In this document: positions 31,304-43,542 of the stretch, piece after piece
How the letters are laid out: the number at the start of each line of letters is the position of its first letter
Position numbering within the stretch: position 1 is the first letter of the stretch
IMG/VR virus record: IMGVR_UViG_3300030380_002011
Coordinates: 1 to 43,542 of that record
From: a virus
Length of the DNA stretch: 43,542 bases
Strand: one strand, 5' to 3'
Position numbers and translations under genes: made by a program
Notes under the pieces: generated by a model
Databases searched by the model: none
What the model saw: the letters and a program-made list of their open reading frames with translations, nothing else
Told to the model about the DNA's origin: nothing

Positions 31304-33370
31304 CTATGAATCCAATCCTGTAACGCCTATCGGTACAGCAGTTGCATGACAAGTAATGCTGCCACCTGTACTTTTTATTTGCAGATTTCCACCACTTGCA
31401 TTAGCCACAAGACTGTTTGATGAAATTGTGTCATAAATAATTACAGCAGAGCCTGTTGATAAACCAACAAGCAATACAATAGAAGTCCCCACACTAGCAC
31501 CCTCTCTTACAACTGTTACCAAATAAAATCCTCTACCTGCATTAGTTGCTCCTGCTGTTGAAAAATCTAAAACATTTGAATAGCTAGATGTAATACTATT
31601 ATTTACACTTCTAAGCGTATCTGTATGCAGTCCAACACCATTTCCTAGAACTGCATGTCCATGATCTTGATCTAAATGTAAAACAACCTGACCTGCACCA
31701 TACGCATAAAAATTAAGGTCTTCAGTAGTAGCTTCATTATTTATCTGCCATTTATTTGTGTTTTCTCTTTGGAATACCATTCCACCATCGTTACCTGAAC
31801 CACTATTAACAATAAAATATTTATTACCTGTATTACCTGTTCCATAGTTAAAACTAAAATTTCCACCAGAGGTAATTCTTGCTCGTTCTGAATTGTTAGT
31901 TACAAAAGCTAAATCTTCATTAGCAACTGAACCAAATATTGTATGTCCGCTTGTGTTCCATCGCCACTCAGACTTAGGTGTTCCTGATACAGAGTTTTGA
32001 AACACACCACCCCATGTGTCGTCAAGTTCTAGAGATACTCTATTAGTTTCATTGTTTGCTGATGCAGTTCCGATTCCAACATTGCCTGCAAAATAATTAC
32101 TACCTCCACTTATATGTGCTATTTCTACAGGAGAAGAATAATCTGACCAAGGTGTTACATTCTGCTCTCTTCCGTATCTAAAAAATCTAAATTTAGTGCC
32201 GCCCTGACTTCTTCCTGCTAAGAAATTTATATTGTAGTCTCCGCTTGTATCGTCAGTAATTTTTAAACCAGAATAACCATTATTAGGATTATCAAAAATA
32301 ACTCCGTTACCTCCCATGGCGTGCAGCTGTGTAACAGGAGAACCGCCCATTCCAACTCTATTATTACTAGAGTCAACTACTAAGGTATTTGTATCAACTG
32401 TTAAATTAGCAGACATCTTCACATCCCCAACAATATCTACGGGGACAGAAGGAGAAGCAGTACCTAGCCCAACTCTTGAGTTAGCGTGATCTACAACAAA
32501 AGTAGGCGAATCAAAAGCAACATCATTAGATCCTACTATTAAATTACCTGGCATAGTAATGTTGCCAGACAACTTAGCACTAGTAACTGTGCTGTCGCTT
32601 GGTGTTCCAATATTAACTGGATTGATTACATAAACTGTTACGCCTCTACCAGCTATAACTCCTGTGGTTATCGTCAGAGTATTGGATGAGATTGTGTAAG
32701 CATCTTGATCTTGAAAAACACCATCTACAAAAACTATTAAATTAGTTTCGGCAGCTGGAGTATCAGATAAAACAAAATCTGTTTGTGGGCTACCGCTTGC
32801 ATCTGCTGCGGTAAAAGTATCAACTGTAAGATTAGAACTTTGTAAGTTAATTAGGTTATCAATAATAACCTCAAGAGCCATTCCATTGGGTGGGGCAGCA
32901 TCGAAGGTCAAATTTGTACCTGAAAAAGATAGAGTGTCGTGGTGCTGTAAAACACCATTTAAGAACACCATAGCGTTGGCTTCAACGCCTGGATTGGTTC
33001 CTATGTTATATGTTGTCGCTCCACCAGCTGTAGTTGCATTGAATACAGTCTGGTTTGCAGATTTAGCTGCAATGTTTTCTTGAATTGTTTCGAGAACTCC
33101 AGCAGTAACCCTACCTTCAGCAGAATCTCCAGACGAGAACGCTCTTGCCGTAGTGCTCTCTTGAGCACGGACAATAGTTAGAGTATTGCCAGACCTAGCA
33201 GTACACTTACATATTTCGTTGTTTGTTCCATCATCAAAAGTAACTAGGAAAAATTCACCAGCGTTTAAGCTAGGGAATACGCTACCATCAGTAACAGTAG
33301 CACTTGTAGCTGAGTTACTAAGGCTTGATGCAAGTGTCGTCTTGGCATTGTTCTTAAAAACAATTCCCAC
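31304..33370 (-). CDS. Tail fibre protein, 688 aa, GTG start
   Basis: N-terminus MGIVFKNNAKTTLASSLSNSATSATVTDGSVFP...GEFFLVTFDD...LTIVRAQESTTARAFSSGD is the head-proximal domain seen in many marine phage fibres. Two related beta modules follow (VFNATTAGGATTYNIG / FLNGVLQ and TAADASGSPQTDFVL / VFVDGVFQDQDAY), then DHANSRVGLGTASPSVPVDIVG and repeated VGIGT phrases, and a C-terminal beta domain. GTG start has GGAGG 8 bases upstream. Confidence 0.87.
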   Translation of the reverse strand: MGIVFKNNAKTTLASSLSNSATSATVTDGSVFPSLNAGEFFLVTFDDGTNNEICKCTARSGNTLTIVRAQESTTARAFSSGDSAEGRVTAGVLETIQENIAAKSANQTVFNATTAGGATTYNIGTNPGVEANAMVFLNGVLQHHDTLSFSGTNLTFDAAPPNGMALEVIIDNLINLQSSNLTVDTFTAADASGSPQTDFVLSDTPAAETNLIVFVDGVFQDQDAYTISSNTLTITTGVIAGRGVTVYVINPVNIGTPSDSTVTSAKLSGNITMPGNLIVGSNDVAFDSPTFVVDHANSRVGLGTASPSVPVDIVGDVKMSANLTVDTNTLVVDSSNNRVGMGGSPVTQLHAMGGNGVIFDNPNNGYSGLKITDDTSGDYNINFLAGRSQGGTKFRFFRYGREQNVTPWSDYSSPVEIAHISGGSNYFAGNVGIGTASANNETNRVSLELDDTWGGVFQNSVSGTPKSEWRWNTSGHTIFGSVANEDLAFVTNNSERARITSGGNFSFNYGTGNTGNKYFIVNSGSGNDGGMVFQRENTNKWQINNEATTEDLNFYAYGAGQVVLHLDQDHGHAVLGNGVGLHTDTLRSVNNSITSSYSNVLDFSTAGATNAGRGFYLVTVVREGASVGTSIVLLVGLSTGSAVIIYDTISSNSLVANASGGNLQIKSTGGSITCHATAVPIGVTGLDS

Positions 33371-33390: not shown

Positions 33391-33816
33391 TTAGCTGACT
33401 GTTACTGTCCAGGTAATTGTCATAGAGTCTGCTGATCCTTTGTTTACAACTGAAAAAACAGTTCTACACAACATAGTACCACCAGAAGAGGCATTAAATA
33501 AGCCAGCTTCTGTAACAGCACCCGTTCCTGTACCCGCTCCAAAAGTTGCAACATAAGTTACAACGGCACTAGAAACGTTTGTGCTTGTTAGAGATACTCT
33601 ACCAAGGGCCGATCCTAATGCGGTGTCTGAAGCAGCTGCAGCTGTAGAACCACTACCAATCTCCATATGAGACATAGCAGTTGCTGAAGCATCTTTAATA
33701 CGAGAAGCAACATAGCCCTTACCTGCGGTAACAACTAGGTTATCTACTTCTTGTACGACCTCACCATTGATTGCAATGGCAAGTTTACCTTTTAGTTTTA
33801 AATCATCATTTATCAT
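33391..33816 (-). CDS. Tail structural protein, 141 aa
   Basis: MINDDLKLKGKLAIAINGEVVQEVDNLVVTAGKGYVASRIKDAS... is a beta-rich protein with MEIGSGSTAAAASDTALGSALGRVSL and a TEAGLFNASSGG-MLCRTVF pattern, common to small phage tail or fibre-base proteins. It lies directly after the cupredoxin-repeat protein. Exact role unproven. Confidence 0.75.
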   Translation of the reverse strand: MINDDLKLKGKLAIAINGEVVQEVDNLVVTAGKGYVASRIKDASATAMSHMEIGSGSTAAAASDTALGSALGRVSLTSTNVSSAVVTYVATFGAGTGTGAVTEAGLFNASSGGTMLCRTVFSVVNKGSADSMTITWTVTVS

Positions 33817-33826
33817 TTATGAGCTC

Positions 33827-36229
33827 CTAATTTAATACAAATGTATTTAAAACAGCAGTATTCAAAATAGATCCCCCACCGGGAATAAATAGAATACTAA
33901 CTGACTCCGATATTGTAGCACTATCTGAAACAGATTTGCTAAAACTATGCGCCAAACTTTCTGCAATACTTGCAGCGTCTGTAGGGTTCATACCAAAACT
34001 GTGGGCTAAAGTCTCTACAATTGAGGTTGTATCTTGTTGTCCTTCTGCAGAGTTTAAGTTAGTTATTTCAGTAATGCTTACTACATCTGCAAATACATCA
34101 GCAGCTGCTAAACTTAGTCCTTCTGAAATAGATACAGTATCACTAAGAGCTTGTCCAATATTAAATACAGGTGTGCCATCTGTAGTTGAAACAGTATCAG
34201 AAGGACTTAAATTAGCTAAATAACTAAGATCTTCACTAATACTTGGGGCATCTGTTATACCAGGCTTACTAAAAGCTTTTGCTTCAGAGTCACTAAATCC
34301 AATAACATTGTTTTTTACTAAGTCTGATTGAGTGGCTAAGTCATCTGAAGCACTTGCAGTATCATCTAAAGCTGCTGCATCAGTAAAAGTTCTAATGAAA
34401 CTTACTACTCTAGCTAATGATTCTGACATTGTAAGGTCACCAACAGTAGATATTGAAGAATTTACCTCTCCTCCCATACCACTATGGTTTGTACAATAAT
34501 AGAAAAGGGTTGTAGCTGTGCTATTTGTTACTTGTATTCTGGTGAAAGCACCGCTTGAACCTGGAGTTCCATTCGTTGTAACTCCTGTTGTGTATTCTGT
34601 TCCACTTGCATGACTTCCATTTGAGGTTTCACTAAATCTAAATGGATGATTTGAATTAGATGAGTCCGATTGATTAAATGTGTAGGTATTACCAGCAACT
34701 AAATGCACTATGGGTGTTATTACGCCATCAATATAATATTTATTTCCAGATCCATGATTATTGACACCAGTTGCTACTGTTACATCAAAAGTAGTATCCC
34801 CATCATCTTGAACAGATGTTTCAGCTCCCATTCCACTATGATTGCTACAGTAGTAATGTAAATCAGGAGTTGATGATGTAACTTCTATCCTTGTGTAAGC
34901 TCCGCTAGATCCTGGGGTTCCGTTGGTTGTTATGTTTGTTGTGTATTCAGTTCCTGAATTATGTGTTCCATTTCCAGTAATTGAAAACCTTAAAGGGTGA
35001 TTAGAATTACTTGAGTCTGATTGATCAAATGTATAAGTAAATCCTTCATTTAAAATTAAACCTGGGCTTGGAAGACCATCTATGTAGAATTTATTTCCAG
35101 ATCCATAAACATTTGTTCCAGTAGCAACAGTTACCTCATAAGTCTTGGTTGTTGGTATGCCTGCCGTTGTAATGTTCGCTTGACCTCCCATTGCAGAGTG
35201 GTTAGTGCAATAGTAATAAAGAGTGCTTGGGGTTGAGTTTGTAACAGTAATTCTTGTATATGCACCAGAAGAACCAGGTGTTCCATTAATAGAAACATCT
35301 GTTGTATACGCTACTCCGCCTGCGTGAGTTCCATTTGATGTTGTTGAAAACCTTAACGGATGACCAGAATTGCTTGAATCAGATTGATCTAATGTATATG
35401 TAAATCCAACCTTTAAAGAAAGCGTATCTTGCTGAACTCCATCTATAACATATTTGTTTCCGTTGCCCGTGCTTACTACTGTAACTGCAAATGTTTGATT
35501 CTCTCCAGCTCCCTCTTCAACATTCTTTCCAAATAACTTTGTATCAGTTTCTGCAACTTGAAGTGTATCTGAGTTGGCTTTTCCAGTTTCTAGTGTGGGT
35601 GAGTCAGAAAATGATAGGCTATCAGCTTTGACAAGTTCAACCTCTACTTCTATTGGATCAGAAAATGATACTGTGTCAGTTTTTCCAATACCAACATTTC
35701 TTATTGCTTGTTCTGTAACAGATGTTGTATCTGCCTGGGCACTACTAAATAGCTTCGCAAGTTCTTCAGTTACAGTAGAAGAATCAGACTTGCCTATAGA
35801 AGTATCTTTAGATGCAATAGCTTCAGCCATTGAAGTGGCATCTGCTAGAGATCTATTGAATTGAACAACTTTAGTAAGTTGCTCAGTTATTGTTGGTGTA
35901 TCTGACTTGCCTAAATTAAATATCTTAGTTGGATCTTGATCTCCAACAGATGTGATATCTGATTTTCCTAAACCAACATTCCTTACATCTGTATCTGTAA
36001 ATGAAATAGTCTCCGCATTAGGCGAACCAAGCGAAGCCATAAAGTAAAGGTTTTTAGTGTCTGAGTCTAAAGTAAGAACAGTATTCAGATTAACAAAATC
36101 TAAACCTGTTTTAAGATTTACAAATTCTAGAAGTGTGGTTGCATCAGATGATGCTTGTAGGGATGCAAACTCCTGCTTGGTTATCTGGATATTGAGAGCA
36201 GAAAATTCTACCTTTAATCTGATAGCCAT
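33827..36229 (-). CDS. Large tail protein with three cupredoxin-like repeats, 800 aa
   Basis: Residues 1-240 and 600-790 consist of short degenerate repeats around S-D-T/S-x-S-x-T-E (for example KSDTPTITEQL, SDTVSISEGL), probably a fibrous shaft. Between them lie three tandem domains of 118-120 aa, each with a TYTFDQSDSSNS-HPLRFS block and a YYC-x2-H-x2-M block. His290/Cys341/His344/Met347, His411/Cys461/His464/Met467 and His528/Cys579/His582/Met585 match the type 1 copper ligand order, with the C-x2-H-x2-M spacing of amicyanin. The protein may bind copper or only keep the fold. It lies between a BppU-like protein and a fibre gene. Confidence 0.85.
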   Translation of the reverse strand: MAIRLKVEFSALNIQITKQEFASLQASSDATTLLEFVNLKTGLDFVNLNTVLTLDSDTKNLYFMASLGSPNAETISFTDTDVRNVGLGKSDITSVGDQDPTKIFNLGKSDTPTITEQLTKVVQFNRSLADATSMAEAIASKDTSIGKSDSSTVTEELAKLFSSAQADTTSVTEQAIRNVGIGKTDTVSFSDPIEVEVELVKADSLSFSDSPTLETGKANSDTLQVAETDTKLFGKNVEEGAGENQTFAVTVVSTGNGNKYVIDGVQQDTLSLKVGFTYTLDQSDSSNSGHPLRFSTTSNGTHAGGVAYTTDVSINGTPGSSGAYTRITVTNSTPSTLYYYCTNHSAMGGQANITTAGIPTTKTYEVTVATGTNVYGSGNKFYIDGLPSPGLILNEGFTYTFDQSDSSNSNHPLRFSITGNGTHNSGTEYTTNITTNGTPGSSGAYTRIEVTSSTPDLHYYCSNHSGMGAETSVQDDGDTTFDVTVATGVNNHGSGNKYYIDGVITPIVHLVAGNTYTFNQSDSSNSNHPFRFSETSNGSHASGTEYTTGVTTNGTPGSSGAFTRIQVTNSTATTLFYYCTNHSGMGGEVNSSISTVGDLTMSESLARVVSFIRTFTDAAALDDTASASDDLATQSDLVKNNVIGFSDSEAKAFSKPGITDAPSISEDLSYLANLSPSDTVSTTDGTPVFNIGQALSDTVSISEGLSLAAADVFADVVSITEITNLNSAEGQQDTTSIVETLAHSFGMNPTDAASIAESLAHSFSKSVSDSATISESVSILFIPGGGSILNTAVLNTFVLN
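34457..35491 (-). repeat. Three tandem cupredoxin-like domain repeats within the 800-aa gene
   Basis: Coding units of about 354-360 bp. The encoded Cys residues are at 341, 461 and 579, giving periods of 120 and 118 residues. Each unit has the same invariant stretches (DQSDSSNS, TNGTPGSSGA or INGTPGSSGA, and C-x2-H-x2-M). The high similarity suggests recent duplication or recombination. Confidence 0.85.
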
Positions 36230-36603
36230 TAGTCAAAATCATCTCTCACGCTAAGTTTTATTAAATCATTGACAGTTTGAATGTTGCCGTCTGATTTCGT
36301 GAACTCAACCTCCGCTTCATAAACTCCAGCATCTGGAAATGTGTCTGATGGAAAAAGCATTGCTACTTTTCCTCCTGAAGCATCTGTGATTGATGCTGTT
36401 ATTGTTTTAAGTATTGTTGTTTCGCCAATTTCCCTGACTCTTACTCTGACTGTTCCTCCAGTTATATTAATTGGAGCAAAAGTGTCTTGATCTTCAGGAT
36501 CTAAAGTTTGACCGCTTGCAGCTGTATTACTATCTTTAAGAGTAATAGTAAGCTCTGGCAGCGTATCGCCTTTTACTAATTTAATTGTTTCCGAATATGC
36601 CAC
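36229..36603 (-). CDS. BppU-like N-terminal domain protein, 124 aa
   Basis: MAYSETIKLVKGDTLPELTITLKDSNTAASGQ... then GGTVRVRVREIGETTILKTI...MLFPSDTFPDAGVYEAEVEFTKSDGNIQTV. The beta-sandwich pattern KGDT-P-L-ITL-D and AG-YEAEVE resembles the BppU N-terminal domain of baseplate upper proteins. GTG start overlaps the adaptor's stop (TAGTG) with GGAG upstream. It probably links fibres to the tail. Confidence 0.75.
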   Translation of the reverse strand: MAYSETIKLVKGDTLPELTITLKDSNTAASGQTLDPEDQDTFAPINITGGTVRVRVREIGETTILKTITASITDASGGKVAMLFPSDTFPDAGVYEAEVEFTKSDGNIQTVNDLIKLSVRDDFD

Positions 36604-42501: not shown

Positions 42502-43542
42502 TTAAAAAAACTGCCTCTTTACTTGCTTATACTGTTGTCTATGTTTTCTAGGCATACTATTTAAACCAAACAAGGCAATAGCATATGCCATTATTCTATC
42601 ATCAAAACACCCTGCTTGGGCATTTGTGATGCCTCTAGCATCTACGACATAAGTTCGTAGTTCACTAATAAGCTCTTCATCAACTATGCCAGATTCTCCC
42701 TGGCGTAATAAATGTACTAAGTTATCAATAATTAAAGGTTTTGTCTTGCTTGTAGTTAAAAAACCTGCTCTTCGGGTTAACTTATCTACATAGGCATCAT
42801 CCACTGTTTGTTCAACATAGAGGTTTGGATAGCCTAGTTCTTGTATTTTTCTAATAGTAGTTAGACCATGATTGTTTCTTTCAATCAATGCCCAGGCTTT
42901 GTTGTAATACTGTCCAATAGTGCCAACGATGTAGGCTAGGTCAAACGGGTCAACATGACCGCTCCAGGTGGCGACCTGGTTTCCGAGGTGGTCCAAAACT
43001 TGTATACAGCTATAGTCTCCATGTTCTAACCCTTCGGAGACATCTACTCCCATGCAATATCTAAGAGAATCCCTTGGATTCTCGAAAATTTTTAGTAGAC
43101 CCTTGGTATGCGGGACTAACTCTGATTCCCTTACATCGAATCGCTCAATCGGGGTAAAGCACTCAACAGCTGCTTGATCTATATATTTTGGATCTACGAA
43201 TAATCTACCTGTAGTCAGAAACGCCTCTTGCGGGGTAGACGGGTATTCTTGTCTGAAAAGATCTTCGCCTCCAAGTTCCTGGATCTTGAGTCTGCGGAAC
43301 ATAATCTGCTCATCGCTCAAGTCATACATAACTTTGATATCTTCTTCTTCACGCTCTAACTCAAAATATGGATCAACCTTTCTTTGATAGTCTGGCATCA
43401 TGTACCACGGGATAAAACAAATATCCCATTCACCTTCACCACGGAGGGCTCGCATACAGGATTCATAGAACCATCCGCCAGCTCCATTCGCTGTGGATTC
43501 TAAAAGGATCTCGGATTCGGCTTCGGGCACTGTTTGGAGGAG
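42502..43542 (-). CDS. terL: Terminase large subunit, C-terminal part (truncated by the window edge)
   Basis: The frame is open to the right edge; about 346 codons remain. LLQTVPEAESEILLESTANGAGGWFYE contains motif C (ESTANG) at the end of the ATPase; Walker A and B lie outside the window. The nuclease domain is complete: CMGVDVSEGLEHGDYSCIQVLD (first acidic site), ALIERNNHG (second) and AGCFDDRIMAYAIAL (DD site). It packages DNA into the prohead through the portal, encoded directly downstream with no gap (TAA then ATG). Confidence 0.95.
   Translation of the reverse strand, partial: LLQTVPEAESEILLESTANGAGGWFYESCMRALRGEGEWDICFIPWYMMPDYQRKVDPYFELEREEEDIKVMYDLSDEQIMFRRLKIQELGGEDLFRQEYPSTPQEAFLTTGRLFVDPKYIDQAAVECFTPIERFDVRESELVPHTKGLLKIFENPRDSLRYCMGVDVSEGLEHGDYSCIQVLDHLGNQVATWSGHVDPFDLAYIVGTIGQYYNKAWALIERNNHGLTTIRKIQELGYPNLYVEQTVDDAYVDKLTRRAGFLTTSKTKPLIIDNLVHLLRQGESGIVDEELISELRTYVVDARGITNAQAGCFDDRIMAYAIALFGLNSMPRKHRQQYKQVKRQFF

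What the first reader, a model, noticed from the sequence alone, without database searches (positions are those of the whole stretch)
34457..35491. Three tandem type 1 copper-like domains in a phage tail protein
Each of three 118-120-aa repeats holds His...Cys-x2-His-x2-Met, the ligand set and spacing of amicyanin-type blue copper sites, with HPLRFS and YYC-TNH-GM context. All twelve ligands are present, so copper binding is likely rather than a decayed fold. A metal-loaded tail shaft could aid stability, adhesion to copper-related receptors or local redox action at the host surface. Adjacent shaft repeats suggest an exposed rod.
Basis: partly seen in the sequence, partly recalled or inferred. 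Interest (0 to 1): 0.75.

Follow-up and report, generated by a model that had tools for sequence, protein, structure and literature searches.

The report
Copper-protein domains on marine phage tails
A marine phage tail protein carries three copies of a small domain with the predicted fold and the full set of metal-binding residues of blue copper proteins, and the same domain recurs in hundreds of marine phages, so many ocean viruses may carry copper on their tails, which the literature searched here does not mention.

Summary
The 800-aa gene at 33827-36229 (-) holds three ~110-aa repeats, each with His...Cys-x2-His-x2-Met. Its only three cysteines are these ligands.

AlphaFold models one repeat with pLDDT 97.5. 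Its PDB fold neighbours are almost all type 1 copper proteins. In 18 diverged copies the four ligands are the only invariant columns, and in 247 copies they are the four best-conserved. In a sample chosen without looking at the ligands, 51 of 52 domains keep the site; the exception lost all four residues at once. A gp9-type copy in cyanophage S-B05 lost three ligands together.

The domain is marine: 74 phage records (cyanophages, pelagiphages, a Methylophilales phage), at least 591 IMG/VR stretches, and a gp9-type form in 331 marine cyanophage records. Relatives also end secreted or lipid-anchored proteins of SAR86, Actinomarina and a marine archaeon. No Pfam or NCBIfam model claims it, and the open-access search found no report.

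Copper binding is therefore likely (about 0.8) but not measured. What the copper does is open. I favour a copper-dependent tail module facing the host over a purely structural staple. The flanking ~18-residue repeats exist; a rod is not shown.

The parts
33827..36229 (-). 800-aa tail (fibre) protein carrying the three domains
   Evidence: PHROG tail-fibre families 30742 (3.5e-70) and 693 (1.5e-38)
35165..35494 (-). Domain 1 (aa 246-355). Ligands H290 (35360-35362), C341 (35207-35209), H344 (35198-35200), M347 (35189-35191)
34808..35146 (-). Domain 2 (aa 362-474). Ligands H411 (34997-34999), C461 (34847-34849), H464 (34838-34840), M467 (34829-34831)
34454..34792 (-). Domain 3 (aa 480-592). Ligands H528 (34646-34648), C579 (34493-34495), H582 (34484-34486), M585 (34475-34477)
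35603..35959 (-). N-terminal ~18-20-residue repeats D-x-x-[ST]-[IVLMF]-[STAG]-[ED], from aa 91 to aa 209 (7 copies)
   Evidence: pLDDT below 50 in the model
33905..34252 (-). C-terminal repeats of the same kind, from aa 660 to aa 775 (5 copies)
33391..33816 (-). Next gene: small fibre-like protein, weakly similar to podophage GP4 fibre gp80
36229..36603 (-). Preceding gene: BppU N-terminal-like protein
   Evidence: 2.6e-05

Best explanation
Each repeat is a cupredoxin domain with an intact type 1 copper site (His, Cys, His, axial Met; amicyanin-type C-x2-H-x2-M loop). The phage displays three of them between shaft-like repeats of a tail protein. Inferred mechanism: virions assemble without copper in the cytoplasm; after lysis the sites take up trace copper from seawater or cell debris; the loaded, rigid domains act as modular tail decorations whose metal site and conserved polar rim contact the host surface. 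Shown by computation: fold, site residues, coordinated conservation, tail context, marine spread. Inferred: copper loading (about 0.8), loading after lysis (about 0.5), host contact as the main role (about 0.4). The stated confidence is for the first two sentences including copper binding.
For: AF2 of domain 1: pLDDT 97.5, pTM 0.89. Foldseek against the PDB: rusticyanin, pseudoazurin (including 2ux6 with an amicyanin loop), amicyanin, purple cupredoxin, nitrite reductase and multicopper oxidases fill almost all of the top 50, at high probability; the whole protein matches multicopper oxidases and factor VIII, which are cupredoxin arrays. A profile of 18 diverged copies hits only three PDB sequences, all blue copper proteins, at weak E 0.029-0.84. 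hhalign to marine plastocyanin-like proteins scores 31 against at most 15.5 for 30 column shuffles, with the first His and the Cys..His columns aligned. The four ligands are the only invariant columns and the four most conserved of 95. In a ligand-blind sample 51 of 52 domains keep the site and one lost all four residues; S-B05 lost three together. Cellular relatives sit on proteins with secretion-signal-like or lipobox N-termini and stalks. Copy number is 1, 2 or 3 in related genes. Between related copies silent sites are saturated or nearly so while amino-acid-changing differences stay near 0.1 per site.
Against: No spectroscopy or metal analysis exists. Matches to Pfam PF00127 stay below its curated cut-off. 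Foldseek E-values for one domain are only about 1e-3 with TM about 0.5. His-Pro replaces the usual His-Asn of small cupredoxins. No redox partner or receptor is identified. A few diverged cyanophage copies lack the site, so the fold does not need copper, and a role in contacting hosts is inference.
Confidence: 0.75

Rival explanations
1. Structural staple: copper (or another metal) only stiffens the domain and protects the tail in seawater; there is no contact or redox role.
For: Modular, copy-number-variable use in fibres, gp7-like and gp9-like baseplate proteins, as for Ig-like decorations. Holo-cupredoxins are more stable than apo forms (general knowledge).
Against: Natural copies without the site keep the same sequence frame (L032, S-B05, P-RSM4), so the metal is not needed for the fold, yet ligands are conserved above the core.
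Confidence: 0.35
2. Copper Trojan horse: the loaded tail is taken for a copper or redox partner by host surface proteins, in parallel with the iron-based Ferrojan Horse hypothesis.
For: Exclusively marine records; the same domain on surface proteins of marine cells, which invites mimicry of a host docking partner.
Against: No receptor known; phages with the domain infect very different hosts; no test done.
Confidence: 0.2
3. Redox trigger: reduction or oxidation of the copper site at the host envelope changes tail conformation.
For: A C-terminal copy in gp9/gp10-like baseplate proteins (PF07880 N-terminus), which in T4 connect fibres to the baseplate (general knowledge).
Against: Type 1 sites change little in structure on reduction (general knowledge); no partner protein found.
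Confidence: 0.1
4. Decayed or coincidental fold: no copper is bound, residues are conserved for packing or for zinc/iron binding.
For: Below Pfam cut-off; some diverged copies lost the site.
Against: Ligands are the best-conserved columns and are lost together, with no one-residue losses in the ligand-blind sample.
Confidence: 0.12

Closest known systems
Amicyanin / pseudoazurin / plastocyanin (small type 1 cupredoxins, PF00127)
   Same: Predicted fold, His...Cys-x2-His...Met set, amicyanin loop spacing, extracytoplasmic cellular relatives
   Different: His-Pro instead of His-Asn, long conserved polar FDQSDSSNS loop before the first His, located in virion tails, sequence below family cut-offs
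Multicopper oxidases
   Same: Three tandem cupredoxin domains; top hits of the whole protein; first ligand in a His-Pro context (general knowledge)
   Different: All three domains carry a type 1 site and there is no HxH or HCH motif for a trinuclear centre, so no oxidase activity is expected
Cyanophage gp9-type baseplate connector C-terminal domain
   Same: Same four ligands in 11 of 12 examined; 331 marine cyanophage records
   Different: One copy, on a T4 gp9/10-like N-terminus, low sequence identity
Iron-binding tail proteins (Ferrojan Horse hypothesis; Alteromonas phage R22Y, PMC11705849)
   Same: Metal sites proposed on marine phage tails
   Different: Iron, not copper

Membership tests
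Type 1 copper cupredoxin | Greek-key beta-barrel (cupredoxin) fold | tested here: met
   AF2 pLDDT 97.5, nearly all-beta model; PDB neighbours are type 1 copper proteins
Type 1 copper cupredoxin | His, Cys, His ligands and axial Met, C-x2-4-H-x2-4-M loop | tested here: met
   natural loop variant C-x2-H-x3-M in L189
Type 1 copper cupredoxin | Ligands close in space around one metal | not testable with these tools
   model coordinates not returned; inferred from fold match and profile alignment
Type 1 copper cupredoxin | Binds copper; ~600-nm band and narrow EPR hyperfine coupling | not testable with these tools
   needs purified protein
Pfam PF00127 Copper-bind | Score above curated cut-off of 21.2 bits | tested here: not met
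   18.1 bits for the whole protein; 8 of 69 copies match at E 0.1 or better, best 0.015
NCBIfam amicyanin / plastocyanin equivalogs | Score above curated cut-off | tested here: not met
   11.4 and 12.3 bits against 110.2 and 87.85
Multicopper oxidase | His-x-His pairs for the trinuclear centre | tested here: not met
   no HxH or HCH in the protein

The most novel reading that the evidence does not exclude
Many marine phages carry copper-loaded blue copper domains on fibres and baseplates and use them to dock on, or sense, the host envelope, possibly by mimicking cell-surface cupredoxins of the marine plankton; copper availability would then affect ocean viral infection.
Probability: 0.25. Interest if true: 0.9.

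Novelty: new variant of a known kind. Interest (0 to 1): 0.7.

Why it matters
If copper is bound, virions of abundant marine phages are copper metalloproteins. That would tie viral adsorption to a trace metal scarce in seawater, add viruses to the marine copper budget, and give a ready bench test (blue colour, EPR, chelation) for an unexplained conserved part of cyanophage baseplates. It also fills a gap: this domain has no model in Pfam or NCBIfam.

Tried and rejected
Nucleotide search in phages gave nothing. Single-sequence PDB search with the three repeats gave nothing; only the family profile reached blue copper proteins, weakly. CBM_4_9 matched 12 of 69 copies (best 1.6e-4) and the window protein only below its cut-off; rejected because fold neighbours are cupredoxins and it does not explain the invariant ligands. 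Multicopper oxidase rejected (no HxH). Tandem duplication of all three repeats within this gene is not favoured: domain 1 is closer to domains of other phages (74%) than to domains 2 and 3 (58-65%), though the tree is poorly resolved. The tree does not decide between viral and cellular origin. One genome scan with the wide alignment failed for lack of a conserved stretch. Literature searches with cupredoxin, blue copper, plastocyanin-like and copper plus phage terms found no report; only an open-access library was searched.

Full report
Observation. The gene at 33827-36229 on the minus strand encodes 800 aa in a tail module: terminase and portal at the window's end, then capsid, SU10-like adaptors, a BppU-like protein, this protein, a small fibre-like protein and further fibre genes. 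It contains three repeats with His at aa 290, 411, 528 and Cys-x2-His-x2-Met starting at aa 341, 461, 579. The three cysteines are the only ones in the protein. The motif occurs nowhere else in ORFs of the window, and shuffled proteins never reach three copies.

Fold. AlphaFold2 on repeat 1 with 69 sequences gives pLDDT 97.5 and pTM 0.89, a nearly all-beta model. The PDB search returns rusticyanin, multicopper oxidases, nitrite reductase, pseudoazurin, amicyanin and a purple cupredoxin in almost all of the best 50 places, with high probability but E-values of only about 1e-3 and TM-scores near 0.5. The full-length model is confident only over the three repeats; its hits are multicopper oxidases and factor VIII. 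A profile of 18 diverged copies found just three PDB sequences, all blue copper proteins, at weak E-values. The gp9-type copy of S-SSM5 finds one PDB sequence, a nitrite reductase with an engineered amicyanin loop, E 0.53, with the Cys-x2-His-x2-Met columns aligned. hhalign to plastocyanin-like proteins from the same marine genomes scores twice the best shuffle and aligns the first His and the Cys..His columns.

Site. In 18 copies sharing as little as 30% identity with domain 3 the only invariant columns are the four ligands; this set left out the decayed L032 copy. In 247 distinct copies they are the four most conserved columns of 95. Because most copies were fetched with patterns that include the Cys loop, I repeated the search with the region between the ligands: 51 of 52 distinct domains keep both halves of the site and the remaining one (L032/L266) has Asn, Ser, Asn, Leu in place of His, Cys, His, Met. 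In 12 gp9-type copies 11 keep all four and S-B05 has lost His, Cys and His together. A few diverged second copies in cyanophages lack the site or part of it; P-RSM4 keeps the first His but has no Cys loop. Within domains 242 of 246 cysteines are the ligand. Together this says that the residues act as one unit, separable from the fold.

Spread. tblastn found 74 phage records, all marine as far as named: cyanophages, pelagiphages, a Methylophilales phage and seawater viruses. A gp9-type domain is in 331 records, all Synechococcus and Prochlorococcus phages or marine single-cell viruses; one of these proteins was checked and has a T4 gp9/10 N-terminal domain. Genes related to the window's carry one, two or three copies, and only the window's ORF has three among 218 distinct ORFs.

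Cellular relatives. The domain also ends proteins that look secreted or lipid-anchored: a SAR86 lipoprotein (L194:5797-6279), Actinomarina proteins with a Thr-rich stalk (L185, L183, L186, L190), a marine archaeal protein with collagen-like repeats (L191:5209-6303) and others. Signal peptides were judged by eye. This is where blue copper proteins normally work (general knowledge), which supports a copper role for the domain. Some other loci in these genome collections are plainly phage contigs (for example L193).

Function. Copper binding is inferred at about 0.8. How the copper is used is open. Because the fold survives without the site in natural variants but the site is kept above all else, I lean to a role of the metal beyond folding, most likely at the host surface (about 0.4), with a structural staple next (0.35). 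Steps not shown: copper loading, the oxidation state, any receptor, and whether the flanking repeats form a rod.

Novelty. Type 1 copper proteins are a known kind; their use as repeated virion tail modules across marine phages was not found in the open-access literature searched, and no Pfam or NCBIfam model names the domain. Reports in subscription journals could have been missed.

Noticed in passing
L086:2643-3866 and 331 phage records: The C-terminal domain of cyanophage gp9-type baseplate connectors is a diverged member of the same cupredoxin family with the four ligands.
   Followed up: partly
L032:357-686 and L296 (S-B05): Natural knock-outs: copies in which the copper ligands are replaced together.
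   Followed up: yes
L189:4499-5143: Two copies with a one-residue longer loop, C-x2-H-x3-M.
   Followed up: no
L187:5803-7593: Marine Rhodobacteraceae contig protein joins the domain to repeats like RTX calcium-binding repeats.
   Followed up: no
BFVD hits A0A481Z7Q7, A0A481Z6J5, A0A481YVH3: Beta-sandwich proteins of pithovirus and marseillevirus relatives match the fold; ligands not checked.
   Followed up: no
window 42502-43542: The terminase gene runs off the window's end, so the record is probably an incomplete genome.
   Followed up: no
window 31304-33370: Neighbouring fibre gene holds two DUF4183 matches (5.3e-06).
   Followed up: no
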